A stretch of 21,240 nucleotides of DNA, from positions 1 through 21,240 of the IMG/VR virus record IMGVR_UViG_3300013129_000045, one strand, 5' to 3'. A model generated the notes under the pieces. It saw only the letters and a list, made by a program, of their open reading frames with translations, ran no database searches and was not told the origin of the DNA. The stretch is from a virus. Numbering within the stretch: the stretch's first letter is position 1; the number at the start of each line of letters is the position of its first letter. A program made the translations under genes and the position numbers. Shown here piece by piece: positions 4,143 through 21,063 of this stretch.

Positions 4143-4155
4143 TGCTTTAACCCCC

Positions 4156-5271: not shown

Positions 5272-5286
5272 TTCTTCACCTCTACC

Positions 5287-6807
5287 TTAATGATTTCGCC
5301 TGATCGCCGAAGCGATCGAACGGCCACCCAGCGGATTGCCGCTCATCTTAGGTGGCATGCCGTTGCGCAGCCTTGAACCAAGAGCTTCCCGTATTACGGT
5401 CTGACCCTCAGGTTTATTGGCATCTTTGGCACTGCTGCCTGGTTCACTGCTTCCGTCAGAGTCCTTTGGAGGATCGGTCTTTGACCCATCATCCCCGGAC
5501 TTGCCGGATGTATCTGATCCCCCGTCCGCAGGCGTACCGGATGGTTGATCGTTGGTCTTTCCGCTATCGTCTGCGGATGCACCTGCTTCTCCTGCACTAC
5601 CATCCCCAGCTGGCGCTGCCGGAGGAGATACCTCCCCGGCACCATCAGGGCTAGCGGCAGGATCGCTCGTTCCACCATCAGGATCTCCTGTGTTGGTATC
5701 GGGGTCTGTGTCGCCTCCTGGAAGGGCCGAATCAGGAGGTGTTTCGCCAGGACCTTTGCCCTGTTCGTCATCACCTTCCTGTGGCTGGATATTCCCAAGG
5801 CTGAGATCGCTCTTGAGCTTATCGAGCTCATCGATCCTATCCCTGAGTGCAGTGGCAAGAGAAACAATGACGTCGTCTTTCTCCTTCAGCTTTGCCTCAT
5901 ACAAGGCAATAACCTGACCAATCGATTGCTCGGTTGATTGGGTTGGTGCAGGGGCAGAAGCCGGGGGAGTCGATGCTTGTGCATTGTCACCCATAGTGTC
6001 ACCACCTTCTGGTTTAATGCTGGCTGATGGATGGACGCTCTTTCCGACTTCCTCGTAAACGTGCAGGTAACCAAGTGATGGTTCCTGATCGATTACCTGG
6101 TACTTGTCGGGTGCGCCCTCACCTTCCATGACGTCCATTCTGCGAACAGCAGCGTAGATGTCAGAGGGATTATACACCACGGAGTATTCCCGGAACAACG
6201 GGTTATACACTTCTGCCATGCAGATTGCCCCATCGTAGTCCTTGCCCGGAGTGTGTCCACACTCTTCATCATACATTGACTTCCCACAGATTGAACATCG
6301 GTAGTCATTATCGGCAACCCGTGCACCCAGGGAAACTGTCAAGAGTCTCCTCGACCGCAGGGCATCGATAGCATTCTGTCCACCTATCATCGCATCGTTC
6401 GGTATGAACGTAGCGACCTTTCCGTAACCAGTGGACAATCCCGAGGGAGTCTCTGTCGCCCTACGGGAGTATCGTGAGAATATGTTGGAGCCAACCGAGA
6501 GAAGTGTGTGGTCTCCCGAGGAGAACAGACCTCCACCACCCATCTCATGATGCATGAGGAAGGGAGTGAGGTGTGGCTGGAAGAAGGACATAACTGCCTT
6601 GTCCATGCCCTTCTCCATGTACTTTCTGTGGTTGGAGTTCTTAAGGCCTGTGTGGAATACCTCAGAGACTACTACTGCACCAGGACCAAAGTCATGCTTC
6701 TTGATGATCTCGGTCGCTATGGCAATAAGTTCGTCGTCTTCCTTCTTGGCGTACTTTGGAACTTCAGCGCCAGGATCCAGGCCATAGTTGACTATGCTTA
6801 GTCGCAT
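5287..6807 (-). CDS. Fused prohead maturation protease and scaffold, 506 aa
   Basis: The N-terminal domain (about residues 1-225) looks like a phage prohead protease of the herpes-protease fold. It has a histidine pair at 86-87, the TVSLG motif with Ser159, and REYSVV with Glu207 before a final conserved stretch. These match in order the His-Ser-Glu triad known for HK97 gp4, though the exact residues are my inference. A cysteine/histidine cluster sits between Ser and Glu (CSIC at 171-174, ECGH at 182-185, C196), as in several phage proteases, and may bind zinc. Residues 293-335 form a charged coiled coil. Residues 341-468 are a Gly/Asp/Ser/Pro-rich linker, and the tail is basic (residues 472-506), like the capsid-binding end of scaffolds. 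A candidate promoter lies just upstream. Self-cleavage after assembly is expected for such fusions. Confidence 0.8.
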   Translation of the reverse strand: MRLSIVNYGLDPGAEVPKYAKKEDDELIAIATEIIKKHDFGPGAVVVSEVFHTGLKNSNHRKYMEKGMDKAVMSFFQPHLTPFLMHHEMGGGGLFSSGDHTLLSVGSNIFSRYSRRATETPSGLSTGYGKVATFIPNDAMIGGQNAIDALRSRRLLTVSLGARVADNDYRCSICGKSMYDEECGHTPGKDYDGAICMAEVYNPLFREYSVVYNPSDIYAAVRRMDVMEGEGAPDKYQVIDQEPSLGYLHVYEEVGKSVHPSASIKPEGGDTMGDNAQASTPPASAPAPTQSTEQSIGQVIALYEAKLKEKDDVIVSLATALRDRIDELDKLKSDLSLGNIQPQEGDDEQGKGPGETPPDSALPGGDTDPDTNTGDPDGGTSDPAASPDGAGEVSPPAAPAGDGSAGEAGASADDSGKTNDQPSGTPADGGSDTSGKSGDDGSKTDPPKDSDGSSEPGSSAKDANKPEGQTVIREALGSRLRNGMPPKMSGNPLGGRSIASAIRRNH

Positions 6808-7315: not shown

Positions 7316-8908
7316 TTAATCTCTACGAGAACCAGGTCCTGCCTTGGTTCCATGCTGATTCGTTGGTTGGTTCTGACTCCGGGTCTTTGCTGACACTGAG
7401 CCCGTACTATCGCCACCAGCAAAGGCGTTTACGGGACCCGCTTCCTTGACAGGAATCTGAACCATGTTGACAAACAGATCGTTCTCGGCTCCATCACCAA
7501 TAGGAGAGAACTTGAGCATTCGTCTGGCTTCTGGGTGCGTTATGATATTGCCCTCCCAGAGGTTGATGATGTCGTTGTGACGGGCTATTTCCTTCTCAAG
7601 GCGCATCTCGTTGAAGATCATGCGCACCTTCATCTCCCCTGTTTCGTCGAACAGATCAGGATCCTCGTACGTGGTCTCAGCCCTGACGAGCAGGTCAGGA
7701 ATGAGATTGAAGTTGATTGGAGCAGTGAGTGCGGATGCCAGATATGTACAATGATCGGCCAGGGCATCATCTATCGACTCGGCCGTATTCCTGTTGGCAC
7801 TATTGCCCTCACCAACCGATATGGGGGAACTTCCCGACCCCATGAGAACTCGGTTCTTGAAGTGTTCAAGGTAGGGTACCAGATTGGCTACCCCACTCTG
7901 CAGGTTCACTGCAGTCACTTTCGTACGGTGGTCGGTAGTGATCATACCATTGGGGGCCATGTTGATGATTGCATCATTGACCCCGCGCACTTCGTCTGGG
8001 CTTGATGGAAGCTCGTCGGTGCCTACCTGGGTATGCAGAAGAGGTGACCCAAACTGAAAGCACAGGAGCTCAATGGTTTCCTCTATAGATCTGAGGGTCA
8101 TGATATCATCAAGCATCTGAAAGCATGGGGGCTCTGGGAACATCTCGTCCCCGGGGTCAGCCATGTAGGCAATCATGATATCCTCAGCTGGAATGCCAAA
8201 GAACGACCCTCCTATCATCTTCTGGATTGCTTGGGCGATCACGCTGAAACTGCCGTCCTGTACTCCTACCAGTCTCCCGCGATCGTTCACATAGAACAAT
8301 GCATTGTGAGGCTTGATAATTCTGAGCTTGGTAATTCTGTTCTTGCGCTTGTCATCAATGGCCATTTCGTCTTTGATGCGTTCCCTGACCTTCTGCAGGA
8401 TCACAACCCCGTACTTGAGAAGACTGATGGCCGCAGAGAAGAGAGTCTGATCCAGAGGCATCATGCTGTCCATCTGGATGCGAGCAATCTCCTTCTTGAG
8501 GGTACCAAGGATCTCCGTGTCGTCAGAGGAGAATCCATATCCATTCCTCATCATAGTCTCAACCTGTCTGATCAGAGATCGTGAGAAGTAGGACTCGCGG
8601 TTGTAAAAGGCATCTATCCTGTCATACATGAACGGGGAGCGCACCATCGTGATGTTGGAGAAGGTCTTCGAGGTAACCTTCCGGCGCTCCATGATGAACC
8701 TATTGAACTTCCTTCCCGACGGCCGGTGTTGACCGAGCATGTCGCTGAGGAGTACAGGGTTGAACTCCGGCATGCCTGTCTGTCGTGTGCTATCTTCAGA
8801 GAAGATACGCTGAGCGAGAGCCGGCACGTTCGTTTGGATCTCTGTGTCATATAGACGGTTAAGCTTGCGCAGGTCTCTGCGCTGGCGAATGTTGTCAAGC
8901 AGTTTCAT
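7316..8908 (-). CDS. Portal protein, 530 aa
   Basis: Portals form the dodecameric ring at one capsid vertex through which DNA enters and leaves. Length (about 500 residues), position between terminase and protease, and sequence style all fit. The N-terminus is helical and basic; the middle has a wing/stem-like region with LRIIKPHNALFYVNDRGRL and VPYLEHFKNRVLMGSG. Near residues 350-380 is SSPISVGEGNSANRNTAE, resembling the SG.P....G...NR.T.E motif common in portals of myophage and siphophage type. A long helix follows, then a Ser/Gln/Gly-rich disordered tail. It starts at an ATG with AGGA nine bases upstream, overlapping the stop of the preceding gene by 14 bases. Its stop lies within the next gene's ribosome binding site, so the three genes are translationally linked. 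Confidence 0.88.
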   Translation of the reverse strand: MKLLDNIRQRRDLRKLNRLYDTEIQTNVPALAQRIFSEDSTRQTGMPEFNPVLLSDMLGQHRPSGRKFNRFIMERRKVTSKTFSNITMVRSPFMYDRIDAFYNRESYFSRSLIRQVETMMRNGYGFSSDDTEILGTLKKEIARIQMDSMMPLDQTLFSAAISLLKYGVVILQKVRERIKDEMAIDDKRKNRITKLRIIKPHNALFYVNDRGRLVGVQDGSFSVIAQAIQKMIGGSFFGIPAEDIMIAYMADPGDEMFPEPPCFQMLDDIMTLRSIEETIELLCFQFGSPLLHTQVGTDELPSSPDEVRGVNDAIINMAPNGMITTDHRTKVTAVNLQSGVANLVPYLEHFKNRVLMGSGSSPISVGEGNSANRNTAESIDDALADHCTYLASALTAPINFNLIPDLLVRAETTYEDPDLFDETGEMKVRMIFNEMRLEKEIARHNDIINLWEGNIITHPEARRMLKFSPIGDGAENDLFVNMVQIPVKEAGPVNAFAGGDSTGSVSAKTRSQNQPTNQHGTKAGPGSRRD

Positions 8909-11399
8909 TGGTCGTATCCTGCCCCCTCAGTATATCAAAGATGTACCGCATAGACTCCTCTATTTCGCTCACCTTTGTGCCCGTCATCTCCTCCATCATG
9001 ACAATAAACTGATCCATGGTGACTATTTGTCCTGTAATAGGATCAACGAACCTGGATACTGAAAGGAGTGGGGCATTGATTGCATTGCTGACAATCTCCT
9101 TGGCGGCTGGTCCGAACTCTCCGAACTGACCTGACATACCGGCCTCAAGGCCATCCAACATCTCCTGATCCTCGACGGTGAAGGTCGTAGACTCGGCCAG
9201 GAGAGGCTTGCTGTATTCGTCAAACTTGGCAAGGTTCTGGGGTGACCCAGCGACCTCCACAAGGAACTTTGCCCTACCATACTCATCAATGATCTCCCGT
9301 CTGACGATCTTATTGATCAGATCCTCAGGATCGTAGCAATCCCTGAGATTAAGGATGAGGTTAATGACAGCCTGTAGAAGCTTTGACAGAGCCTCAAGAG
9401 ACTTCAGTCTCATCCTCGTCAGCATGACATCGTTAAGAATGACTATGTCAGGAAGAGTAAAGTCAAGGACCCTCATGATGGAGTTAAGTATACCCCACTT
9501 GAGGTTGCCAAGCAGACAGAGCAGGAACTTGAGGAACTTGTCGAATCCAAAGCATTCGTTGTTGATCATATGACGAATCTCTGGGATTGTTTGCAATCCA
9601 GCGAGCAGCTGATCCAATGGACCGAAAAGGATATCCAGGAACTCTGACAAACCATTGGCAATGGTTACCTTGATCATCTCCCACATCTCGGTAAGAGGAA
9701 GCGTAAGACCGGCAAGCAGGATCTGTCTCTGCATCTTCCCAATGAAGATATCGAGGATCTGCTTCAGAACCTGCAGGAGCTTGACAAACTCCTGGAGATC
9801 CTTGTTGTTGCGAAGGTCCCTGGCCCATCTCAGATGTAGCTCTTCACGGACAGCATCACCGTCTTCCTGATCAGGGCACCATACTCCCTTTGTGATAAGA
9901 GCCCTCCATATTGACGCTACCGCCACAATAAGGTAGATGAAGCAGCAAAGCTGTTTCGAGGAACCCCACTTGGAGAGGTCAGCAACCATACACACCATAC
10001 GGTCAGCAAAGCTCAGTATCTCATAGAGGACGTTGTCAAGTTGCTCCAGGAACTGGAATTGGGATCTTCCAACGAGTGGAGTACCATTGTTCTTTGGTAA
10101 CCATTGGCCAGCAGCCTTGTTAACTGCCACGGTCATTCGCTCCTCTGGAGATCTGTTGTCCGTATCCTGCATTCCAAAGCAATCCCATGGGGCCGTTGGT
10201 TTCCCTGTGTGCTGATACAACCGTTGGTTCTTGATGGCACTCTGGACAGTATCCGTCATTACGGTACCAACATCTGCCGCCTCAATGGTCTTGGTAAGTA
10301 CCCTGACATTCTCAGCTCCAAAGCCCATCGTTCCAGTAGTGGATTGCCTGGTCTCAAGATACCTGGCTACTTCTTGGGCAGCAACCCGCTCATACTCGTT
10401 AGGCTCGATGTTCTTGTTCGTGGCATTGTCGACCGTACAGATGGTCCGTTTGCCAGCGTAGTCTGGATCCATCTCCTGTCTGATCCACTTCTCGAAGCAT
10501 GAGCTCTGTATGAACGAGAAGACGTCATTCTCTGTTATGCCAAAGAAGATTGGCTCCATCACACAGCAGTTGATCTGCTTGAAGTCCATCTTGCGCCATT
10601 GGTCGTGGTCGCACTTGTGCGGTGGCTTGCTGCGAAGACTGCACTTGTATCCAACCAACTTTAGGAGCTGCTTCTCAATCTTGTGTAACTGGTCGGCGAT
10701 CTTATCACCTATCTTCCATTCGAACTTGAGCCTGACCTTCATGATCTTCTTGTTGATACCAAACTTCAGCTTTCCCCTGAAGAATCCACAGACCCAACCC
10801 ACTGTGTAGTGGACAGAGATCACATGAGCCATCTTCAGGACTATCACAAGCAGCTTTAGACCGTACATTACCTGCTTCAGGTAGGAGGCATTCTGAAGCT
10901 TGCTCGTGACCTTCTTCTTGAGAGCATCGGCGTTGAAGTTCTTCACATCATCAAGATAGGGTTTCTCCTGACCCTTGGGGTCATATGCTCCAGCAACCCT
11001 GAAGATACACTGGGCCACATCTGCGGGCAGCGTGTATGCAGGATCTGTTGGAGGAAGTGGCTCTCCTGCCGAGTCTGTGAAATGGATGTCAGTAAGATCC
11101 GTCAGGAGTCTCAACACATGCAGTGGTGCGTCGCCCACATATAGGTCAAGATCCTCGATGGTCTTGTCGAGAAGGAACTCCGAGCGTAGTCTGATCTCAG
11201 CAGCTATGCGTCCATATTCTATGAAGCGCATCTCGAATGCGGTAAGGGGGTCTGGAACATCCTCTTTAGGGATGCCAAGATCCTCCAGGATGGTATCACG
11301 CACTGCGTGCTCTGCTGTGATCTCATCTGGAATGTTTACCCGCTCCCTGATTGGAGCCTTGATGTCCGGTCTATAGAAGAGTTCGTCGCGTTCCGCCAT
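8895..11399 (-). CDS. Large cysteine-rich protein with hydrophobic segments between terminase and portal, 834 aa
   Basis: Not recognised. I chose the ATG at 11399 (MAERDELFYRP) because AGGA lies just upstream (GGCAGGACTAT before ATG). A longer in-frame start at 11516 would only add sequence antisense to nothing and out of frame within the terminase tail. Features: acidic N-terminus (residues 1-130); membrane-like segments around 174-207 (QVMYGLKLLVIVLKMAHVIS) and 484-503 (LCCFIYLIVAVASIWRALIT); amphipathic helices through 530-690; and an acidic, methionine-rich C-terminus. There are 16 cysteines, several clustered at 253-301 (YKC, HKCDHD, NCC, SSC). A gene this large between terminase and portal is uncommon. 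Possible roles include an internal head protein, a portal-associated protein or one delivered with the DNA; all are inference. It overlaps the terminase stop by 29 bases. Confidence 0.8.
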   Translation of the reverse strand: MAERDELFYRPDIKAPIRERVNIPDEITAEHAVRDTILEDLGIPKEDVPDPLTAFEMRFIEYGRIAAEIRLRSEFLLDKTIEDLDLYVGDAPLHVLRLLTDLTDIHFTDSAGEPLPPTDPAYTLPADVAQCIFRVAGAYDPKGQEKPYLDDVKNFNADALKKKVTSKLQNASYLKQVMYGLKLLVIVLKMAHVISVHYTVGWVCGFFRGKLKFGINKKIMKVRLKFEWKIGDKIADQLHKIEKQLLKLVGYKCSLRSKPPHKCDHDQWRKMDFKQINCCVMEPIFFGITENDVFSFIQSSCFEKWIRQEMDPDYAGKRTICTVDNATNKNIEPNEYERVAAQEVARYLETRQSTTGTMGFGAENVRVLTKTIEAADVGTVMTDTVQSAIKNQRLYQHTGKPTAPWDCFGMQDTDNRSPEERMTVAVNKAAGQWLPKNNGTPLVGRSQFQFLEQLDNVLYEILSFADRMVCMVADLSKWGSSKQLCCFIYLIVAVASIWRALITKGVWCPDQEDGDAVREELHLRWARDLRNNKDLQEFVKLLQVLKQILDIFIGKMQRQILLAGLTLPLTEMWEMIKVTIANGLSEFLDILFGPLDQLLAGLQTIPEIRHMINNECFGFDKFLKFLLCLLGNLKWGILNSIMRVLDFTLPDIVILNDVMLTRMRLKSLEALSKLLQAVINLILNLRDCYDPEDLINKIVRREIIDEYGRAKFLVEVAGSPQNLAKFDEYSKPLLAESTTFTVEDQEMLDGLEAGMSGQFGEFGPAAKEIVSNAINAPLLSVSRFVDPITGQIVTMDQFIVMMEEMTGTKVSEIEESMRYIFDILRGQDTTNETA

Positions 11400-13314
11400 A
11401 TAGTCCTGCCGTCCTTGATCTTGATTGGCCTCCCCGAATTGGCCCCAGGGAGCCTGTAGCAATCCTGGCAACGTTCTGAGCTGCCTGTACGCTACGCGAT
11501 TCCCTGACAACGTCATAGAGTTCTGCTGTCTGTATGTTTAAGTGCGCACTCTGTGGTCTCATCTGCAATGAGTTGGAGAAGATATCATAACCGTGGACAC
11601 AGAACTGAAGTGCCGAGAGTGAGTGCGTATTGTCTGTATACTCAAAGCCACCATCACGCTGGTAGCCCTTGCGACGGAAGTTCCTGAGCTCCTTGATAAG
11701 TCCGTCGCGCTTTCCCTCTTCCTCCTTTGGAAGTACGAGGGACTCTTCCAAGTACTTCGCGAGGAGTCCAACAATCTTTGTCTTTACTCTCACGACAATG
11801 GTATTCCGCCGTCGACCGCCGGTCTCAGGAGAGTCATATTCGACAACCATCTTTTCCTTCTTGGTTGAGTCAACAATGTTGAGCAGCTTTGATGGCTCTC
11901 CGCCTACCTTGGGAAGCTCCTTCTGGAGGAGTTCGATCTGGGTCTCTCCATATCCTGAGTCTACAGAGATTACAAGATGCTTGCCTTCCTTGTACAGATT
12001 GACAATGCGCTCAACTGATCGTGATTGCGTATACTCAGCATATGAGATACTCTCATGACGAGTAACCCATGGTCGTCCAAACATCGTACATATCTCGATG
12101 ATCCTGACGCCGTTCTGGGGATTGTTCCAGTCTACTCCAAGGTATTTGGATCCGCGCTCATACTCAAGTGTCTGCCTGAGTTCCTCCATGGTAAGATACC
12201 GCCCGGCAAGGGCGCCCCGCATAAGCGCTTCATCTATGGCACTACCCTTGTAGACAGCGCCCTTCGCCTCAGCCCACTCTGCGAGAACCTCGAGCTTCCA
12301 TGTGACTTCATCAAAGATAAGCTCACGAAGACGGGCTTCAATCTGTGGCCAGTTCTTCTCAAGCGTTGATGGTAGGTGATACTCTGCACCGTTCTTGTTC
12401 TTTGGGTCAGCACACTTGTCGCAGAACTGTCTGAACCATGTGTCCTCAAGACCGGACGGAGTAGATGACGCCCAGATAGGAATGTTCGGGTTACCTTTGA
12501 TGATACCATTGATGACAGGCCATGCCTTGTCGGGAAGGTATTCAGCCTCGTCCACATAGATATGTGTGGCTGTCTGTCCGCGAGCTTTGTCTGGCCTCTG
12601 TTTCATGAAGAAGAAGCGTATTACGGACCCAGTCGATGCCTTGATCTCATAGTCATACTCTGGTTCCAGCGCATCGCGCAGCTTCTTCCTCGTCCCCAGT
12701 CTATAGGATGTCCTGAGCTCAGAGCCTCTGATGAGATTCTGCATGATCTCAAGCATACGGTTCATGTTCTTCTTCTCTGGGACAAAGATCAGTATTACCG
12801 CATGCTGGTTTATGCCAGCACAGTGTAGAATATCAACGCACATGTGCACGGTCTTTCCCTGCTGACGACCTACGCGAGCTGCTCGATTGAGAGATCCGTC
12901 ACGTAGCAGGGCCTTGAACTGATCCCTGCATTCAAACTTGGTCTTTCCCACATCGGGATCTGTCAGATAGCTTTCTGACCAGGTGACAGGATCGAGAGAC
13001 GCCTCAAGCTCTCGGATGTCCTCATCAGTTGCCCCGTCTCTCTTCAGTAGTGCGATCTGTTCGGGGGTGAACTTCTTGACGATTGCAGGCATGCCTACCT
13101 CTATGGTGTAATCATGGCATATATTGTAGAATGTACCCAGGTCAAAAGACCACTCTGGAGGGGGAATGAGGAAGCTCGGACGATTCAGTAAGACCACCGG
13201 AAGGTTCGGTTCCCAGAAGGTGAGGAAGTACTTCACGACTGGGGCCAACCCTGGAGTGTTCTTCATGGGGAAGGGGGCCAGGTCTACCACAAGCCGGTTG
13301 ACCAGAGCACTCAC
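11371..13314 (-). CDS. terL: Terminase large subunit (ATPase plus nuclease), up to 647 aa
   Basis: Packages phage DNA into the prohead. Numbering from the GTG at 13314: Walker A RVGRQQGKT (147-155), Walker B IYVDEAE (252-258) with catalytic Glu256, and the coupling motif WASSTPSG (281-288). The C-terminal RNase H-like nuclease has acidic residues at Asp395 (YLGVDWNN), Asp452 (VISVDSGYGE) and Asp561 (YTDNTHSLSALQ). Length fits large terminases, and the Ser/Arg/Gly-rich tail is probably flexible. The start is uncertain: neither the GTG at 13314 nor the ATG at 13266 has a visible Shine-Dalgarno. The 5' end overlaps a divergent plus-strand gene. It heads the leftward gene series. Confidence 0.93.
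   Translation of the reverse strand: MSALVNRLVVDLAPFPMKNTPGLAPVVKYFLTFWEPNLPVVLLNRPSFLIPPPEWSFDLGTFYNICHDYTIEVGMPAIVKKFTPEQIALLKRDGATDEDIRELEASLDPVTWSESYLTDPDVGKTKFECRDQFKALLRDGSLNRAARVGRQQGKTVHMCVDILHCAGINQHAVILIFVPEKKNMNRMLEIMQNLIRGSELRTSYRLGTRKKLRDALEPEYDYEIKASTGSVIRFFFMKQRPDKARGQTATHIYVDEAEYLPDKAWPVINGIIKGNPNIPIWASSTPSGLEDTWFRQFCDKCADPKNKNGAEYHLPSTLEKNWPQIEARLRELIFDEVTWKLEVLAEWAEAKGAVYKGSAIDEALMRGALAGRYLTMEELRQTLEYERGSKYLGVDWNNPQNGVRIIEICTMFGRPWVTRHESISYAEYTQSRSVERIVNLYKEGKHLVISVDSGYGETQIELLQKELPKVGGEPSKLLNIVDSTKKEKMVVEYDSPETGGRRRNTIVVRVKTKIVGLLAKYLEESLVLPKEEEGKRDGLIKELRNFRRKGYQRDGGFEYTDNTHSLSALQFCVHGYDIFSNSLQMRPQSAHLNIQTAELYDVVRESRSVQAAQNVARIATGSLGPIRGGQSRSRTAGLYGGTRRTLL
13083..13112 (+). 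promoter_or_regulatory. Weak candidate promoter for the rightward genes, inside terL
   Basis: TTGCAG (13083-13088; three of six match TTGACA), an 18-base spacer and TGTAAT (13107-13112; five of six match TATAAT) lie about 53 bases before the first plus-strand start. The CTATGGT lead-in matches the one at the site near 2614. As there is no non-coding space between the divergent gene sets, any rightward promoter has to lie inside terL. Evidence is pattern only. Confidence 0.25.
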
Positions 13315-13555
13315 TCGCTATGGGGGCACAGTGTCAACAGCAAAGAGACTTGGACTTGGTGCCGGTCTTGCCGGCATAGGTGCTGCTGCACTTGGAGCCA
13401 CTGCGGTATACAAGCTCTCAAACTTCAGAGATGGTCTCGCCCGCGGTCTCTTTCCCAATAGCTCCATGCCCATGGAATCAGGTATGTACGGCCATCGAAC
13501 GTCGTCTCAGCCTGCCGGAATTGGCGGACTAAGGTTCAGCTTCCGCAGGGGGTAA
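13166..13555 (+). CDS. Small basic membrane-prone protein with glycine zipper, 129 aa (or 96 aa)
   Basis: First gene of the rightward series. It has a basic N-terminus, one strongly hydrophobic glycine/alanine-rich segment at residues 61-82 (RLGLGAGLAGIGAAALGATA) and a Gly/Ser/Met-rich tail ending FSFRRG. Such glycine zippers occur in membrane-inserting phage proteins and in holins, but nothing identifies a lysis gene. Two starts are possible. The ATG at 13166 has GGAGGGGG just upstream with a short gap and overlaps terL by 149 bases. The ATG at 13265 (MGKGARSTTSRL) has GGAG eight bases upstream and overlaps terL by 50. I favour the shorter form slightly, since it spares the conserved-looking terminase N-terminus. 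Its stop (TAA) is followed three bases later by the next gene's GTG. Confidence 0.6.
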   Translation: MRKLGRFSKTTGRFGSQKVRKYFTTGANPGVFFMGKGARSTTSRLTRALTRYGGTVSTAKRLGLGAGLAGIGAAALGATAVYKLSNFRDGLARGLFPNSSMPMESGMYGHRTSSQPAGIGGLRFSFRRG

Positions 13556-13558
13556 TGA

Positions 13559-15070
13559 GTGGCACTCTTTTCCGCATACAACGGTGAGAATCTTGCCTAC
13601 AACATAAGGGAGATGGGTAATATTCGCTCAGATCCCTACACGCGTCAAGACTTCGAAGACGCGATGCCTAGTCCTACTTCAATTGCAATGCTGCCTCTCA
13701 AGCTCAGCCTCTATGCAAGTACCATAAGATCAGCATGGTATGGAATGGGCTACATAGGCAGCACAGCAAATAGGTTCAATCCTAACCGCCTCAAGTGGCG
13801 GTATCGTGCAACAACAGTAGATGGCCTCATTGGTGGTACCATACGTGCCATTCAGAATGGTACGGTTCGTCTGTTCAGAGGTGAAGCGTTCACCTTTGGT
13901 AAGTGGAAGACGATGAAGAACAGTGTCAAGTCTATGCGTGATGCATTCGTACAGCACGGTCTTTCCCCGCTCACCGCAGGGAAGTACCCAGGAACCATGG
14001 TGGGAATCACGAAGGCCACGAGATCTTTCAGGCCAAAGGAGGGTTTCAAGGAAGTCAGGCGTCTCTTCATGGAGCACACCGGAAGATCTGGCCCCGCAAT
14101 AGAGAGCGGCCAGCGAACCAAACCATGGTCAAGGATATATACACCACAGGGAGAGACAGCATTCATGGCTGCACGAGGAACATGGTCCATGGGTCTCATG
14201 GATCGGTTCTATCTAAGTCCAAAGAACATCAGTTCCAACTTGGAGTCACTGCTTGAGAAGGGCGTCTTCGCCGCTGGAGATGATGCGCAGGGAATCTACA
14301 AGGCTCTCTCAACTGATAATGCCTTCGCACAGAACCTTGCCAGAGAACTATATGCCGGGGATCTGAGGTCAGTTGCACACCAGAGAGGAAAGGCTGACAT
14401 CATTGAGCGCTCTGTCTGGGGCAAGACCAGAGCTGACGCAATGAGCCGCAAGCAGTATCGTCAATACTACAGGGATGTACTGAAGGACCGGAAGACCACT
14501 ACCCTGTGGGATATCATCAAGGGAGAGAGTAGAACCAAGGGGACCTTCTGGGATAGACGTAAGGGATTCTTTGTTGGCGAGAACAGAGTACGGTTCACCA
14601 GGAACATGACTGGTGCCCGTCCGTTCATGGGCACGAGGTTCACCTTCTGGTGGAACCGTGCAGCATACGGAAAGCTCTATGGCCAGGTCGCTGAGGCAGC
14701 TATGCGAACCATGCGCGATCAGGGAGTTCAGAACGTTGCATCTGCCGCAGTGAGAGAGGCAGCTGGAAACATAGCATCCACCGTCGTTGGCAGGGTACGC
14801 CTCGCAAAGCTGGTACGTGGCGTGGGGATTGCCGCATATGCAATTCCCATGGCGCTTCAGGGAGCCATGAGTGCATACAAGACCGCCACTGAGGTGGTTG
14901 CCAGAGCAGCACCAACCATGAGGATGTTGACAAGAATGGAGTTCGGCACAGGAGAAGTACTTGATTCCGCCAGGATGGCTACCGAGCGCCAGAGGGCGGT
15001 GTCTGCAATACAGAATGCCCACATGAACGCCCGGTACCTCCTTGGCAACGAGGCATCACTCTACCATTAA
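13559..15070 (+). CDS. Basic protein of unknown function, 503 aa
   Basis: Begins at a GTG (13559) with AGGGGG eight bases upstream; an ATG at 13555 is in another frame and stops quickly. The protein is rich in Arg, Lys, Ala and aromatic residues. It has a possible amphipathic or hydrophobic stretch near residues 41-70 (SIAMLPLKLSLYASTIRSAW), basic tryptophan-containing sequence through the middle (KGTFWDRRKGFF, RFTFWWNRAAYGK), and a glycine/alanine-rich hydrophobic segment at 418-440 (VRGVGIAAYAIPMALQGAM). The rest is helical. No catalytic motif is visible. Basic charge plus a membrane-like segment could suit a DNA-associated or ejected virion protein, but this is inference. Its stop codon shares a TTAA with the stop of the convergent regulator gene, so the two end back to back with no terminator between them. 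Confidence 0.8.
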   Translation: MALFSAYNGENLAYNIREMGNIRSDPYTRQDFEDAMPSPTSIAMLPLKLSLYASTIRSAWYGMGYIGSTANRFNPNRLKWRYRATTVDGLIGGTIRAIQNGTVRLFRGEAFTFGKWKTMKNSVKSMRDAFVQHGLSPLTAGKYPGTMVGITKATRSFRPKEGFKEVRRLFMEHTGRSGPAIESGQRTKPWSRIYTPQGETAFMAARGTWSMGLMDRFYLSPKNISSNLESLLEKGVFAAGDDAQGIYKALSTDNAFAQNLARELYAGDLRSVAHQRGKADIIERSVWGKTRADAMSRKQYRQYYRDVLKDRKTTTLWDIIKGESRTKGTFWDRRKGFFVGENRVRFTRNMTGARPFMGTRFTFWWNRAAYGKLYGQVAEAAMRTMRDQGVQNVASAAVREAAGNIASTVVGRVRLAKLVRGVGIAAYAIPMALQGAMSAYKTATEVVARAAPTMRMLTRMEFGTGEVLDSARMATERQRAVSAIQNAHMNARYLLGNEASLYH

Positions 15071-15501: not shown

Positions 15502-15795
15502 ATGGGACAAACAATGGGATTAAAGATGGTCAGCTACGACCAGGTCAGGGACCAGGGGATGATCGCCTTTCTATCGAAGAAGGGGAACATGAAGACAGTC
15601 TCGATTCATCGGAAGACATTCGACCGCCTGATGTCGGGGGAACTCGACCGCAGTACCGAACCAGGAGAGACACCATCGCTTGACCAAGTGGATCTTCGTG
15701 AGGCCCTTGTCAGCGAAGTCAAGAAGGACTATAGCCAGTGGTTCGATACGAACGCGAATAGGCTGTCCCAGGAGGCATGCAACGGTGCAAGGTAA
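15502..15795 (+). CDS. Hypothetical protein, 97 aa
   Basis: ATG with AGGGGG five to six bases upstream; first gene after the divergent intergenic region. The protein is soluble and charged. The N-terminal half (GMIAFLSKKGNMKTVSIHRK) looks like a short beta-strand pair, and the C-terminal half is acidic and helical (LDQVDLREALVSEVKKDY). No known motif. Its stop overlaps the next gene's GTG start by 11 bases, and it encodes the AGGAGG used by that gene, so the two are translationally coupled. An accessory or regulatory role is possible but unsupported. Confidence 0.75.
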   Translation: MGQTMGLKMVSYDQVRDQGMIAFLSKKGNMKTVSIHRKTFDRLMSGELDRSTEPGETPSLDQVDLREALVSEVKKDYSQWFDTNANRLSQEACNGAR

Positions 15796-16759
15796 TCCTG
15801 GTGATACCACTACCAGTGGGGAAGTACAGAACACCAAGGCAAAGCCGCGGAAGAAGAAGGCCAAGGTCGTTCTTCCCCAGCGCAAGATGGGAGCCAACAG
15901 CATCAAGGATAGGGTGCCTGTCAAGTCAAGGCTTGTGGCTGTTGAGGGAAAGGATCTGCTCACAGAGCCAATTACCCTCACACAGAATTCCATGCAGCCA
16001 TTCAGGTCAATACCTAACCCCGATGATGTGATGCCTCACGACCAGATTGCACCCAACATAAGGGAGGCAATCATTACCAACTATGGCGAGGAGTTCTTTC
16101 GCAATAAGACCTGGACAGTTGGCATCATACGGAAGCTTACGAGAGCTATCTCAACACCAAGGGAGAATCTGACGGGCGCCCTCGCCCAGATCTGTGGACC
16201 AAAGTGTGCGTACAAGGACCTCTGTCCTCACGATATCGTTGGACGTGCTCCTATCGGAGACAGATGTCCTCAGGAGATGGCTCTGATCTCACTTCTCTAT
16301 AATGAGTATATGTCGTCTGTCTCTGACCGGTTGCGTACAGATGTTCAGTCACTGAAGGAAGATATCATAACGCACAACCTTGTTATGGGTCTGGTAGAGG
16401 CAGACATTGTATCTATGAGGCTGGATGGAACCATTGCTTCTGAGGGCTTTATTTCCCTTGCTCCAGCCGTTGTCAACGAGACCACGGGTGAGTTATATAC
16501 CAAGGAGGAAGAGGCGGTTGCTGTCCGTATCAAGGAACGGGTATATCGCCGAAGGGACCAGTTGTACCGCCAGCTCCTGGCCACGCCCGAGATGGCAGAG
16601 AAGTATCGAAGGAAGGAAGGAGCAGATCCACTGGCAAAGACCGCGTCACTCCTTTCCAGACTGGAGCAGTTAGTTACCAAGGTGGAGAGCAAGCAAATCA
16701 CAGATGGAGAAGTTATAGGCGATAGCAATGTCGCTGATCGAATCCCTCAAACCGAGTGA
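15785..16759 (+). CDS. Four-cysteine protein with basic N-terminus, 324 aa
   Basis: Start chosen at the GTG at 15785 because AGGAGG (15770-15775) lies nine bases upstream; longer forms would overlap the previous gene deeply. Residues 17-35 are basic (KAKPRKKKAKVVLPQRK). Residues 137-161 hold a cluster C-x3-C-x5-C-x13-C, read as ICGPKCAYKDLCPHD then APIGDRCPQE, suited to a zinc or Fe-S site. After it comes a helical region of about 130 residues (LLYNEYMSSVSDRLRTDV; ERVYRRRDQLYRQLLATPEM) ending in a coiled coil. I do not recognise the family with certainty. The overall shape (DNA-binding basic segment, metal site, helical oligomerisation region) would allow a small-terminase or DNA-tethering role. 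The last 32 bases overlap the nuclease gene, suggesting a shared function. Confidence 0.8.
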   Translation: MQGNPGDTTTSGEVQNTKAKPRKKKAKVVLPQRKMGANSIKDRVPVKSRLVAVEGKDLLTEPITLTQNSMQPFRSIPNPDDVMPHDQIAPNIREAIITNYGEEFFRNKTWTVGIIRKLTRAISTPRENLTGALAQICGPKCAYKDLCPHDIVGRAPIGDRCPQEMALISLLYNEYMSSVSDRLRTDVQSLKEDIITHNLVMGLVEADIVSMRLDGTIASEGFISLAPAVVNETTGELYTKEEEAVAVRIKERVYRRRDQLYRQLLATPEMAEKYRRKEGADPLAKTASLLSRLEQLVTKVESKQITDGEVIGDSNVADRIPQTE

Positions 16760-19700
16760 CCACACTCAGCAGAAGGAGTGGATGAAGTACGACAGGTATC
16801 TTGGTCGTACAATATCACCATCCTATATTGAGAGTGTCGCCACCTGTCCCGCCAAGGCCTACTTGGAGAAACTCACCAAGTCGAGCTATGACGCGTTCGT
16901 AAGCATCGCTGCGGATGCCCAGGGCTCTGCCGTGCACAATGCACTTGAGCAGGCCTTCAACTTCCTTCAATCAGGAAAGTCAAACTGGAAGTCAGCCATG
17001 AGCAAGAGCAAGGGCACCTATAACCCTAGCTCAAAGCAGATAGAATATATGCTCCGCAGGTCTCAGACAAGAGCGGAACTCTCCCTCAAGCAGCACATTC
17101 CCATCAATGACCCATCAATAGGAAAGATGCAATCCTACATACATGATGTCATCTTTGACTATGGCAAACGGTATCTCGACGACGAACAGGTCTTCCTCGG
17201 ATCGGAAATGAACGTCCAGACGAGGGGTCTGAAAGCTGGGGCACAGATAGGTGGTAACCTCGATCTAGCTCTGTACAACGCACGCACCAAAGAGATGGAT
17301 CTCATCGACTTTAAGTACGCCAGGAAGAAGGGGGCTGACATTGGCCACGACTTCCTGAGTGTTATGAAGCCAGGAGCAATGGATGCACCTGAGCAGCACA
17401 TTCAGCCCAAGATATATGCGTACTCATTGTTGGAGCGCAATGCGCAGATTGAGAAGATCCATTTCATGTATGACATCTACTGGGACTTCGAGTCAGGTAC
17501 GAAGAAAGGTAGACAAGTGGTCAAGGGTAAGAATCCATTTACCCGCCGGGACATGGCTAGTCTGAAGGCTGAGCTTTCTGACAGAGTGTCAGAAGTTCTT
17601 ACTCATGAGCGCCAACTATCTGCCAGCCTGAAGCGCGCAAGAGGATCCAATGTTCTCAGAGCTCTGGCCCAAGTACGTAAAGGAGCATGTAACCCAGCAG
17701 TATGCGGATCCTGCCCATTCAAGTATCAGTGCTCTTTCAAGAGCTTTGTCGAAGAGGCCAGGTATAAGGCAAAGGGAACGGGTGGTGAACTGTTTGCAGA
17801 CACTGAGCTAAGGAAGCTCTCTCACCTCGATGATCGACAGTTCAATGAGCAGATGAGCAAGCAGTACAGTGAATTCGTCAACGAGAAGAAGCGTATCTTT
17901 ACCGTTGACCGAGTGAAGCAGCTTCGTAGTGAGTTCCACTTTGACCGGCGCACTGCCTACGATATTGCCAAGGTAGAGGCAGAGGAACTAGGGAAGTCAT
18001 ACGAGAACATGCGCTATTACAAGCGAGGTCAGTTCGTTGACTCTCTCGAGAAGGGAGCATGGGCGGCAAGAGCAAGGCTACCATACAGTTTGCTTGATCC
18101 AGATGCACGAGCATCATGGATGACTACAACCATTCAGCGCAATCTCAAGGACTACTCAGAGGAACACGTCGAGCGTCTTGCCAAGGACTTTGATGTGCCT
18201 GTGAACCTTGCCCGTGAGGTCGTCATAGACAACGTCTACAAGGATAGGAACTTTGCTGCCCACCTCCATGGAATGGTAATGGATAATACCATAGAGGTTC
18301 TCAGGCAGGAGGGTATCTCTCTTGGAAAGTACGAGGGACAGCTGACCTATGACATGCAAAGGGACGTTGGCAAAGCACTCAAGCAATACCACCGTACGAT
18401 CAACAGAAACGTGGCTCTTACAGTCCAGGGCGCACTGGATCAGGAGTTTGTCCGCTATGTGATGACAGTGGATCAGGAGAAGATCAGATCGTTGATCAAT
18501 GTCGCTGAGCGACAGGATATCAAGGCTATCACTAAGGGATTGGTAGACATGGGTCTTATCAAGTCTGACCCTGACAAGTTTCTGTCTCAAGTTGCTCAGT
18601 CAGAATCCTTTGGGGCAGTCATAGAAAGATCACGCCTTGGATCACCAAAGTTCCCACTTGGGTCTCTGATGATCGCAGGCATGCTGACCTACATTGCCGG
18701 CGCAGAGTCTATCTCTCGGATAGTCGGCAACAAGATAGAGAAGTTCAAGTTTTACTCTACACATCAGGATGATCAGGTAGATGACGGAACCCACTCCTCA
18801 GTATACACTGTGTCACGACGACTCCTCTACAGTGACTTTGGCTCTTCGGTCCGTTTCGTCATGCGAAGAAGCAGCCAGGTTCTCCGTCATCTACGTGACT
18901 ATCGTGACTTCATGAAGGATGCAGTTACTCTGCTCACTGGGTATACCTCAACCAAGGCACAGGGGTTTGCCGTGCATATGGCAAAGGCCATGGGGGTGGG
19001 ACTGGAGAAGTCCGTCAAGTCCTTGGTAACCCTCTCTGATAGCACCATCAAGGAACCAAGGCTCTTGCTTGCAGGAACCGCCGCGGCCGCTGGGTTCTTC
19101 GCAGTCATTCCACATCTGGCAACCGACCGAGAGATTCGTAACCGAACGGAGGAACGCCGGAGAGCTTTCAAGGCCATCAAGAAAGCCAAGTGGAATAGTT
19201 CCTCTGGGGATAGGATAAATGAGTCTCCCCTCAGGGAGGCCTACCGATCATTCAGCCCATTCGGGTCCGGACTGTTCCTTGAGGCAGCAGCAAACTTTAT
19301 CGCCCCAGCCATGCGTAAGATAGCACTCATGTGCGAGACTCCTCTTGGGAAGAAGAGCTTCGTTGAAGCTGCATCAATGGTCAAGACCCATCTTCTTGAG
19401 GCATGGCAGGGTATGAAGCATCGAGCCGAGGATGTCTATGCCCAGAGTGATCTCAGGACAGTGCTCAAAGATCTCAGGCACGACATCGCGGAGTCCCATT
19501 CCAAGAGGGTTCTCACGACAGGCATCGATGTAGTAAGCAACGCTGCACAGAAAGTCAAGGCCACACTGGAAGAGTCAAAGCTCCGACAAAGGATGATGGT
19601 CTCTTCACTTGACAGAGCCAAGGGGCTATCAACCAGACTGAGAAAGACAGGTGCAGATCTCTCTGAGAAGGATCTGAAGAGGACCCTCGGGAAAGCAGCA

Positions 19701-20294
19701 TCTGAAACCATACACTCGGTTGATGAGATTGCCATGGCGTTCCCAGCAGGTGCCCCTGCCGTTTCAACTATTGCAGGGGCCGGCACTATGGGAACAGAGC
19801 GGGCCCTGCAACATGTGCATACTCAGTATAGACAGAATGCATATCTCAGGGAAAGAGGTGGGGTAGATCCTGACTACTACCAGTCATATAGGACAGAGAC
19901 AAACAGAAAGGACGGAGTGCAGTACCAGTATCCAAGGCGGCATCCAAGGCAACCTGTTGACATGAGTTCTCTCATGGAAGGCAGTGGAGTTGAATCACCT
20001 GGTATGCTTGACCTGTATACAGGGGGCGCCCGGGAGATTGATCCTGGCGTTGGCATAGCATCTGGAGGAGCATCTGCGCGACACATAGCGATGCCCGCTT
20101 CACAGAGACGCGCCAGGGTGATGAATGTACCACACGTCATCGAACCCGGGAGAGCGTTCGACGCCCAATGGGCCGATACTATTGGCGTCAACCGATTCGT
20201 AATGAGCAGGTCTCGGACGAGAGGGTCCTGGTACACGAATGGGAGCAATACACTCCAAGCATTTCATGAGGTAGTCCATGGGTATCAACGGTAA
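16728..20294 (+). CDS. Cas4/AddB-like Fe-S PD-(D/E)XK nuclease fused to a giant unrecognised C-terminus, 1188 aa
   Basis: Residues 28-340 form a RecB-family nuclease with all expected motifs in order: SPSYIESVATC with Cys40; GSAVHNALE with His70; GGNLDLAL with Asp179; DLIDFKYA with Asp194 and Lys196; QPKIYAYSLLE with Gln227; then C-x4-C-x2-C-x5-C (Cys321, 326, 329, 335). Cys40 plus the last three match the 4Fe-4S ligands of Cas4 and AddB, which cut single-stranded DNA ends. Free-standing phage versions are normally 200-350 residues. Here about 840 more follow: helical charged sequence (350-640), a hydrophobic segment at 643-666 (PLGSLMIAGMLTYIAGAES), another at 778-798 (RLLLAGTAAAAGFFAVIPHL), coiled-coil-like helices (900-990), and a Gly/Arg/Pro-rich tail. 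No helicase motif is present. The ribosome binding site is weak; the start overlaps the preceding gene by 32 bases. Confidence 0.9.
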   Translation: MSLIESLKPSDHTQQKEWMKYDRYLGRTISPSYIESVATCPAKAYLEKLTKSSYDAFVSIAADAQGSAVHNALEQAFNFLQSGKSNWKSAMSKSKGTYNPSSKQIEYMLRRSQTRAELSLKQHIPINDPSIGKMQSYIHDVIFDYGKRYLDDEQVFLGSEMNVQTRGLKAGAQIGGNLDLALYNARTKEMDLIDFKYARKKGADIGHDFLSVMKPGAMDAPEQHIQPKIYAYSLLERNAQIEKIHFMYDIYWDFESGTKKGRQVVKGKNPFTRRDMASLKAELSDRVSEVLTHERQLSASLKRARGSNVLRALAQVRKGACNPAVCGSCPFKYQCSFKSFVEEARYKAKGTGGELFADTELRKLSHLDDRQFNEQMSKQYSEFVNEKKRIFTVDRVKQLRSEFHFDRRTAYDIAKVEAEELGKSYENMRYYKRGQFVDSLEKGAWAARARLPYSLLDPDARASWMTTTIQRNLKDYSEEHVERLAKDFDVPVNLAREVVIDNVYKDRNFAAHLHGMVMDNTIEVLRQEGISLGKYEGQLTYDMQRDVGKALKQYHRTINRNVALTVQGALDQEFVRYVMTVDQEKIRSLINVAERQDIKAITKGLVDMGLIKSDPDKFLSQVAQSESFGAVIERSRLGSPKFPLGSLMIAGMLTYIAGAESISRIVGNKIEKFKFYSTHQDDQVDDGTHSSVYTVSRRLLYSDFGSSVRFVMRRSSQVLRHLRDYRDFMKDAVTLLTGYTSTKAQGFAVHMAKAMGVGLEKSVKSLVTLSDSTIKEPRLLLAGTAAAAGFFAVIPHLATDREIRNRTEERRRAFKAIKKAKWNSSSGDRINESPLREAYRSFSPFGSGLFLEAAANFIAPAMRKIALMCETPLGKKSFVEAASMVKTHLLEAWQGMKHRAEDVYAQSDLRTVLKDLRHDIAESHSKRVLTTGIDVVSNAAQKVKATLEESKLRQRMMVSSLDRAKGLSTRLRKTGADLSEKDLKRTLGKAASETIHSVDEIAMAFPAGAPAVSTIAGAGTMGTERALQHVHTQYRQNAYLRERGGVDPDYYQSYRTETNRKDGVQYQYPRRHPRQPVDMSSLMEGSGVESPGMLDLYTGGAREIDPGVGIASGGASARHIAMPASQRRARVMNVPHVIEPGRAFDAQWADTIGVNRFVMSRSRTRGSWYTNGSNTLQAFHEVVHGYQR

Positions 20295-21063
20295 GGCAGT
20301 AAAGGAACACTATCACGTCTTGATTGCGTATGGGGATCTTCACATACCCCGCAACAATAGAGGATATCAGAGAATACTCCTCGACATTATTTCAGACGTC
20401 CAGCCCGATGTTGTGCTCGACGGTGGGGACATCATATGCGCGGACTGTCTCTCAAAGTACCTCAAGAAGCACAGTCAGCTAGTTGGCCTGCAGGAAGAAC
20501 TGGACGAGGCATACATGTGGATGGTTTCTATCAACTCCACGGTTCCTTCGGCACGGAAGATCATGCTTCGTGACAATCACTTCTGGCGAAGGCTCGAAGA
20601 CAAGAAGAAAGGTGAGCTCTGGCTCGAGAGTCTCAAGGCGGCCGGCGGCCGTCAACTCCTGAGGCTCGAGGAACTAGGATGGGAGGATATGGTTGAATAC
20701 CAATGGAGGGATCAGCTGCTTTTCGTCCACGGTGATGATAAGGCAGGCAGCCAGGATTGTCCAGTGAACCGAACCCGCAACATGGTGCGCAACACCGGAC
20801 TCAGCATCGTGAGATTCCACTCCCACACCTCAGGAGTGGAAGTAAGAAGACACATGTCAAAGGAACATATGGCTATCCAGCTTGGGGCCTTCGAGGATCT
20901 TGACCACCCAGATATTTACATGAAGCACCCGAAACTGTCAAACTGGTCAACATCATTCGGGGTATTCTATCTTCCACGGGAGAAAGGCGAGAACTTCCAG
21001 TTCGAGCCAATCTTCTTCCGGGGAGGAAAGGCTGTCTTCAATGGAAGGGCATATGGACTCTAG
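20278..21063 (+). CDS. Calcineurin-like metallophosphoesterase, 261 aa
   Basis: Two-metal phosphoesterase fold. Ligand motifs appear in order: GDLH (Asp20, His22), DGGD (Asp51), RDNH (Asn100, His101), FVHGDD (His151) and FHSH (His181, His183). Family members cleave phosphodiesters or phosphomonoesters; phage examples are often linked to DNA metabolism, as are SbcD/Mre11 nucleases. The usual GNH is DNH and the usual GHTH is FHSH, so flanking glycines are lost while metal ligands stay. The protein is short and lacks the SbcD C-terminal cap. ATG with GAGG upstream; it overlaps the nuclease stop by 17 bases, so the two are translated together. A nuclease or phosphatase acting on the same DNA ends is a reasonable guess; substrate unknown. 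Confidence 0.88.
   Translation: MGINGKAVKEHYHVLIAYGDLHIPRNNRGYQRILLDIISDVQPDVVLDGGDIICADCLSKYLKKHSQLVGLQEELDEAYMWMVSINSTVPSARKIMLRDNHFWRRLEDKKKGELWLESLKAAGGRQLLRLEELGWEDMVEYQWRDQLLFVHGDDKAGSQDCPVNRTRNMVRNTGLSIVRFHSHTSGVEVRRHMSKEHMAIQLGAFEDLDHPDIYMKHPKLSNWSTSFGVFYLPREKGENFQFEPIFFRGGKAVFNGRAYGL

What the first reader, a model, noticed from the sequence alone, without database searches (positions are those of the whole stretch)
16728..20294. Cas4/AddB-type Fe-S nuclease fused to an 840-residue membrane-prone region
All nuclease motifs and four Fe-S cysteines are visible in the first 340 residues. Phage Cas4-like nucleases are normally free-standing and short. Here the remainder is large, unrecognised and contains at least two membrane-like segments, with no helicase motifs. 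The enzyme may be anchored to a membrane or to the virion, perhaps acting on DNA at entry (processing ends, attacking host or competitor DNA, or interfering with CRISPR adaptation). The fusion is seen directly; the roles are inference.
Basis: partly seen in the sequence, partly recalled or inferred. Interest (0 to 1): 0.75.

Follow-up and report, generated by a model that had tools for sequence, protein, structure and literature searches.

The report
Membrane-linked phage nuclease, probably injected effector
A giant-tailed-phage protein joins a DNA-cutting domain like that of the bacterial repair enzyme AddB to a long membrane-prone region; relatives carry other enzymes in the same gene slot beside the DNA-packaging genes, which suggests an interchangeable weapon carried into the host, although presence in the virus particle has not been shown.

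Summary
The ORF is real and the fusion is genuine. Residues 28-335 match PDDEXK_1 (PF12705, E 1.4e-14); a structure model of this part best matches AddB. It is not Cas4 by profile. The same fusion stands in one open frame in three diverged viral contigs (23-35% identity) and, cut off by a contig end, in a fourth. Catalytic residues and CxxCx5C are invariant in all five. The 840-residue part is low-confidence helical, with two conserved hydrophobic segments.

Context changes the reading. The gene directly follows a conserved cysteine protein beside the terminase of a myovirus lineage distantly related to KLEB27-3, MTATph1 and ME3. In this slot other members carry long multidomain proteins: DEDDh exonuclease, staphylococcal nuclease, kinase, HExxH. 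These share a TM plus 'H.G.A..R..TDFGSGWQG' linker; a profile of it made without our clade hits the fusion's most conserved column (hhalign 27.3; null maximum 19.2, 0/200).

Best explanation: an interchangeable nuclease effector of polyvalent-protein type, packaged with or injected beside the DNA and tethered at the membrane (about 0.5). Nuclease family, fusion, slot and linker are supported; packaging, tethering and target are inferred. New variant of a known kind.

The parts
16728..20294 (+). Nuclease-membrane fusion protein, 1188 aa
   Evidence: ORF; homologues with the same fusion in G003, G004, G005 and, truncated, G006
16809..17732 (+). AddB/RecB-type PD-(D/E)XK nuclease domain (residues 28-335)
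   Evidence: PF12705 E 1.4e-14, 16809-17732 in a DNA search; AddB top in Foldseek; invariant catalytic residues
17688..17732 (+). Cysteine cluster C321-x4-C326-x2-C329-x5-C335 (residues 321-335), candidate Fe-S ligands
   Evidence: C326, C329, C335 invariant in five homologues; fourth Cys 4-5 residues before C326 in all five
18657..18713 (+). First hydrophobic, membrane-like segment (residues 644-662)
   Evidence: hydropathy, conserved position in four homologues
18792..18845 (+). Linker motif H689-S-S-V-Y-T-V-S-R-R-L-L-Y-S-D-F-G-S706
   Evidence: most conserved block of the C-terminal part; matched by a linker profile built outside the clade
19062..19118 (+). Second hydrophobic, membrane-like segment (residues 779-797)
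   Evidence: hydropathy, conserved position in four homologues
19227..19271 (+). Second FGSG-like motif, about residues 834-848 (LREAYRSFSPFGSGL)
   Evidence: sequence; best linker-profile hit in P0001 lies at residues 840-848, weak, 24/500 shuffles
15713..16759 (+). Conserved upstream cysteine protein ('TS-like', C-x3-C-x5-C-x13-C), candidate small terminase or DNA-binding partner; start codon uncertain
   Evidence: alignment A2; profile finds it before the slot protein throughout the lineage
15502..15795 (+). Small conserved protein of the block, 97 aa
   Evidence: homologues in L001, L004, L005
13559..15070 (+). Hydrophobic, basic 503-aa protein ('P503') with conserved C-terminus NARYLLGNEASLYH and an FGTG motif
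   Evidence: homologues next to TerL across the lineage
13166..13555 (+). Small Gly-rich hydrophobic protein, 129 aa, of the same block
   Evidence: homologues in L001, L003, L004, L005
11371..13314 (-). Terminase large subunit, divergent from the block (true start probably near 13083)
   Evidence: phrog_2 E 6e-25; homologues start at that point
20278..21063 (+). Metallophosphoesterase-like protein after the fusion gene; among the complete relatives found also in G004 only
   Evidence: phrog_221 E 3.5e-17

Best explanation
The protein is an interchangeable nuclease effector of a large myovirus, working like a polyvalent protein: made late, carried in the particle or ejected with the genome, with hydrophobic segments that place or pass it at the host inner membrane, and an N-terminal AddB/RecB-type PD-(D/E)XK domain that cuts DNA ends (host DNA, competitor DNA, or ends relevant to RecBCD/AddAB-type defence) early in infection. 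Supported here: nuclease family and intact catalytic motifs, conservation of the fusion, position directly after a conserved cysteine protein in a terminase-linked block, other enzymes in the same slot in related phages, and a shared TM/FGSG linker. Inferred: late expression, packaging or ejection, membrane insertion, and the DNA target.
For: Nuclease: PF12705, phrog_69, AddB chains as best PDB fold matches, phage PD-(D/E)XK exonucleases as best viral fold matches, catalytic residues invariant in five homologues. Fusion conserved at 23-35% identity in one frame with synteny. Slot: the TS-like gene is followed by a long protein, then P503 and TerL in many loci. Slot proteins carry DEDDh exonuclease (profile against PDB: oligoribonuclease 9.3e-6, DnaQ 1.3e-5), SNase (1.3e-12, 1.4e-7, 2.2e-12; 6.2e-12), kinase and HExxH motifs (7 against 0.66 expected in shuffles). 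Linker: a profile of 33 segments from outside the clade hits the same alignment site in three fusion homologues (0/500, 0/500 and 3/500 shuffles), and hhalign scores 27.3 against a null of 11.3 +/- 1.9, maximum 19.2, 0/200. Published frame: phage polyvalent proteins combine unrelated enzymes, occur in portal-terminase phages and are likely packaged in the capsid (PMC5512222).
Against: No virion proteomics could be read; the 0305phi8-36 proteome paper is not held. The window protein has only one recognised enzymatic domain, no HExxH conserved in the clade, and no Pfam polyvalent-associated domain, so it is a simple case if it is one. The linker match is short, and for the window protein itself the single-sequence score is at noise level (24/500). 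Hydropathy of the two segments is borderline. In this clade the block is inverted relative to the terminase and reordered, so co-transcription with late genes is not shown.
Confidence: 0.5

Rival explanations
1. DNA-packaging or end-processing nuclease: the fusion works with the TS-like cysteine protein and terminase at the portal, trimming or resolving DNA during packaging, and the hydrophobic part assembles with P503 in the prohead.
For: Neighbour of a conserved small-terminase-like cysteine protein, within a block beside TerL; ME3 has a TnsA-like 'head completion' nuclease in the same block (PF08722 5e-14).
Against: Slot content is variable and includes kinase, SNase, HExxH and DUF4406, and many lineage members have only small proteins there, so a fixed packaging step is hard to assign.
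Confidence: 0.2
2. Membrane-tethered intracellular nuclease made after infection, for host-chromosome degradation, recombination or superinfection exclusion, not carried in the virion.
For: Free-standing PDDEXK_1 nucleases (267-289 aa) lie far from the terminase block in KLEB27-3 and MTATph1, so such enzymes also serve inside the cell; in the window and G004 the fusion is followed by a metallophosphoesterase, a fold used by SbcD-type nucleases (the functional link is from general knowledge); the block is divergent from the structural operon in this clade.
Against: In relatives the same block runs in one direction with TerL and the structural genes; the metallophosphoesterase is not found with the fusion in G003 or G005.
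Confidence: 0.22
3. Structural or pilot protein (ejection or tail-like) in which the nuclease domain is a decoration with little enzymatic role.
For: Most of the length is helical and hydrophobic-prone (low confidence); neighbours P503 and the 129-aa protein have a similar character; L063 carries a 340-aa TM/FGSG protein without a recognised nuclease.
Against: Catalytic residues and the cysteine triplet are invariant at about 25% overall identity, which implies selection for activity.
Confidence: 0.08

Closest known systems
AddB nuclease domain (AddAB; PF12705 PDDEXK_1)
   Same: PD-(D/E)XK motifs of RecB type, C...CxxCx5C cysteine pattern; best PDB fold match
   Different: No helicase part; nuclease is N-terminal, not C-terminal; N-terminal cysteine missing in two of five homologues, with a further cysteine 4-5 residues before CxxC in all; followed by an 840-residue membrane-prone region
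Cas4 / free-standing phage Cas4-like and RecB-like exonucleases
   Same: Same superfamily; phage Cas4-like and RecB-like models are among the best viral fold matches
   Different: Pfam Cas4 does not match; the viral matches are short (218-480 aa among those listed)
Phage polyvalent proteins (Iyer et al. 2017, PMC5512222)
   Same: Large proteins of portal-terminase phages joining unrelated enzymatic domains; slot relatives carry kinase, SNase, exonuclease and HExxH
   Different: The window protein has one recognised enzyme only and none of the polyvalent-associated Pfam domains; a nuclease of this type with TM/FGSG linkers was not found in the parts of that paper searched
Acinetobacter phage ME3 gp011
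   Same: Same block (after the TS-like gp009, before the P503-like gp012 and TerL); FDTETTG exonuclease-like N-terminus and one hydrophobic segment near the C-terminus
   Different: DEDD-type, not PD-(D/E)XK; Pfam support only weak (RNase_T 0.039); shorter

Membership tests
PD-(D/E)XK nuclease, AddB/RecB type (PF12705) | Profile match above the curated cut-off | tested here: met
   55.1 bits against 22; also G003 and G006; G004 and G005 not over the cut-off alone but align at 24-37% in the domain
PD-(D/E)XK nuclease, AddB/RecB type (PF12705) | Catalytic H/E, D, DxK, Q residues | tested here: met
   H70, E74, D179, D194, K196, Q226 invariant in five
AddB | Superfamily-1-like helicase region joined to a C-terminal nuclease | tested here: not met
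   No helicase family; nuclease is N-terminal
Fe-S nuclease (AddB/Cas4 type) | One N-terminal and three C-terminal cysteines that bind 4Fe-4S | tested here: inconclusive
   Complete in the window, G003 and G004; N-terminal Cys absent in G005 and G006, alternative Cys present; a bound cluster cannot be tested here
Cas4 | Match to the Cas4 profile PF01930 | tested here: not met
   No match in the window; control genomes ring
Polyvalent proteins | Two or more unrelated enzymatic or conflict domains in one polypeptide | tested here: inconclusive
   One recognised enzyme plus an unrecognised region in the window protein; several in slot relatives
Polyvalent proteins | Zincin-like metallopeptidase or polyvalent-associated Pfam domain | tested here: not met
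   None in P0001; the single HExxH at residue 1180 is not conserved. A common, not a universal, feature of the class
Polyvalent proteins | Encoded by a portal-terminase phage and delivered with the DNA | not testable with these tools
   Portal and terminase are present; delivery needs proteomics
Terminase-linked slot proteins of this lineage (defined here) | Gene directly after the TS-like cysteine protein, in the TerL/P503 block | tested here: met
   order within the block differs in this clade
Terminase-linked slot proteins of this lineage (defined here) | TM plus H.G.A...R...TDFGSG linker | tested here: met
   clade profile 27.3 against null maximum 19.2; weak in the window sequence taken alone

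The most novel reading that the evidence does not exclude
A lineage of large myoviruses keeps, between a small-terminase-like cysteine protein and the large terminase, an undescribed polymorphic effector slot. Nuclease classes (PD-(D/E)XK, DEDDh, SNase), kinases and putative peptidases are swapped in and out behind a conserved hydrophobic plus FGSG linker that may act as the processing or particle-loading signal.
Probability: 0.4. Interest if true: 0.75.

Novelty: new variant of a known kind. Interest (0 to 1): 0.6.

Why it matters
No relative of the fusion was found among 50,697 phage records at the sensitivity used, so this arrangement is not in that set of annotated phage genomes. If the slot reading is right, the position next to the terminase predicts where to look for injected effectors in a large group of uncultivated phages, and the FGSG linker offers a sequence handle for a loading or cleavage signal. 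Cultured relatives (KLEB27-3, MTATph1, ME3) make the virion question testable.

Tried and rejected
Cas4 membership: profile negative. Single-sequence searches with the fusion in phage records and viral contigs found nothing; relatives came through the terminase. Genome-contig searches with the fusion and with the capsid protein found no relative, so no host can be named. Structure of the C-terminal 843 residues: pLDDT 41, pTM 0.23, not used for a fold search. Profile of the C-terminal part against PDB: only chance-level hits. Assembly artefact: rejected by three other contigs. A PD-(D/E)XK domain in slot protein L138 was suspected from motifs, but hhalign gave P 0.09, so it is not claimed. The downstream metallophosphoesterase as a conserved partner: rejected, seen in the window and G004 only and not alignable with MTATph1 CDS0003. 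A C-terminal HExxH in the window protein: not conserved, treated as chance. 0305phi8-36 records and the proteome paper were not available.

Full report
What was checked. The window is a 21,240-base IMG/VR virus fragment. The ORF at 16728-20294 is open over 1188 codons. PF12705 matches residues 28-335 at E 1.4e-14, and phrog_69, a phage exonuclease family, matches residues 28-372 at 4e-12. The Cas4 profile PF01930 finds nothing in the window.

The fusion is not an artefact. A terminase search fetched related contigs. Three of them carry the fusion in one uninterrupted frame: G004 1143 aa, G003 1203 aa and G005 1185 aa, at 35, 24 and 23% identity. A fourth, G006, has the nuclease part and runs off its contig end at 448 aa. 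Gene order around it is shared. In the five nuclease domains H70, E74, D179, D194, K196, Q226 and C326, C329, C335 do not vary. The N-terminal C40 is absent in G005 and G006, but all five have a cysteine 4-5 residues before the CxxC (C321 here). If a cluster is bound, the ligand set may therefore differ from that of AddB.

Fold. The nuclease model (366 aa, five sequences, mean pLDDT 67.7, pTM 0.69) has AddB chains as its best PDB matches (E 8e-4 to 7e-3), then MGME1 and RecE. TM-scores are low (0.2-0.3), so this supports the fold family, not a close relationship. Viral matches are short PD-(D/E)XK, RecB-like and Cas4-like exonucleases. The C-terminal part is predicted helical at low confidence and has no convincing database match. 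Its two hydrophobic segments recur in all four complete homologues.

Surroundings. On the minus strand lie terminase, an 873-aa protein, portal, protease or scaffold candidates and capsid; the long relatives continue with conserved proteins of 809 aa (read here as the sheath) and 266 aa (read as the tube). The sheath and tube names are inferred from position and size, not from a profile search. The terminase is distantly similar to those of ME3, MTATph1 and KLEB27-3, and the ME3 record notes homology of its terminase to Bacillus phage 0305phi8-36. On the plus strand is a block: 129 aa, 503 aa (P503), 97 aa, a cysteine protein (TS-like), the fusion, and a metallophosphoesterase.

The slot. A broad terminase alignment fetched 80 loci. 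Profiles of the TS-like protein and P503 place both beside the terminase in much of this set and in KLEB27-3 and MTATph1; ME3 has the TS-like protein and a P503-like gene recognised only by eye. Where a long protein follows the TS-like gene, it is often an array of enzymes: DEDDh exonuclease at the N-terminus (seven aligned; profile against PDB oligoribonuclease 9.3e-6 and DnaQ 1.3e-5), SNase in L099, L105, L110 and L119, kinase-like domains in L098, L101, L105, L113 and others, and HExxH in seven of fifteen proteins against 0.66 matches expected from shuffles. Many other members have only small Gly-rich proteins there. In the window's clade the order within the block is changed (P503 before TS-like) and the block is inverted relative to TerL.

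The linker. The long slot proteins repeat a motif of the form NTIEGLxHxGIAxxxRKxxTDFGSGWxG, often after a hydrophobic segment. The most conserved block of the fusion's C-terminal part, H689...RR...SDFGS706, follows its first hydrophobic segment. A profile of 33 linker segments from outside the clade hits that site in G005 (12.6 bits, 0/500 shuffles), G004 (0/500) and G003 (3/500); in the window protein its best hit is weak and lies at the second motif (24/500). Profile against profile gives 27.3 against a column-permuted null of 11.3 +/- 1.9, maximum 19.2 in 200; control alignments reach at most 18.0 (P503, which has an FGTG/FGSG motif of its own).

Interpretation. An interchangeable set of nucleases, kinases and putative peptidases in one terminase-linked position, joined by a hydrophobic linker, resembles the polyvalent proteins described by Iyer et al. 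(PMC5512222), which are argued to be packaged and injected. The window protein would be a simple member of that kind with an AddB-type nuclease in the place that DEDDh exonucleases hold elsewhere. It works like one; strict membership is not shown, because no metallopeptidase or polyvalent-associated domain was found and delivery cannot be tested here. Packaging-enzyme and intracellular membrane-nuclease readings remain open.

Limits. Survey loci were taken by terminase similarity and oriented by it, so they are not an unbiased sample. Loci from one record recur under several ids. Several domain calls are weak (L116 kinase, L124 ATP-grasp, ME3 exonuclease) and are marked so. The linker motif was first noticed by eye in the fusion and then tested with a profile built outside the clade; the test set is only four related proteins. 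The genome collection gave no host.

Noticed in passing
window 15713-16759; lineage-wide (A2): The TS-like protein has an invariant C-x3-C-x5-C-x13-C motif followed by conserved helices; no Pfam or PHROG family. Candidate small terminase subunit or metal-binding partner of the terminase.
   Followed up: partly
L030 (ME3) 4078-5373 and 9152-11434; L065 9962-12226: ME3 gp009, annotated as RNA methyltransferase, reads as a TS-like protein with an intein-like insert inside its cysteine motif; the ME3 and L065 terminases also carry intein-like inserts.
   Followed up: no
L132, L136, L143, L130, L134, L137, L065, KLEB27-3 gp008 (L028), MTATph1 CDS0251 (L036): A small protein of the block ends in a conserved tail, 'GDLVFALHNLRHGG', and a related tail ends slot protein L138; possibly a shared loading or assembly signal.
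   Followed up: partly
window 13559-15070 and homologues: P503 proteins share a C-terminus of the form RQ.A...I....NAR..LGNEA...H across very diverged phages, much more conserved than the rest of the protein.
   Followed up: partly
window 8895-11516: An 873-aa protein between terminase and portal, conserved at 37-69% in the relatives, with no confident family (weak tape-measure PHROG, E 0.05).
   Followed up: no
G003 19861-22880 and G004 52993-56426: Tandem runs of paralogous small genes beside the block in two relatives.
   Followed up: no
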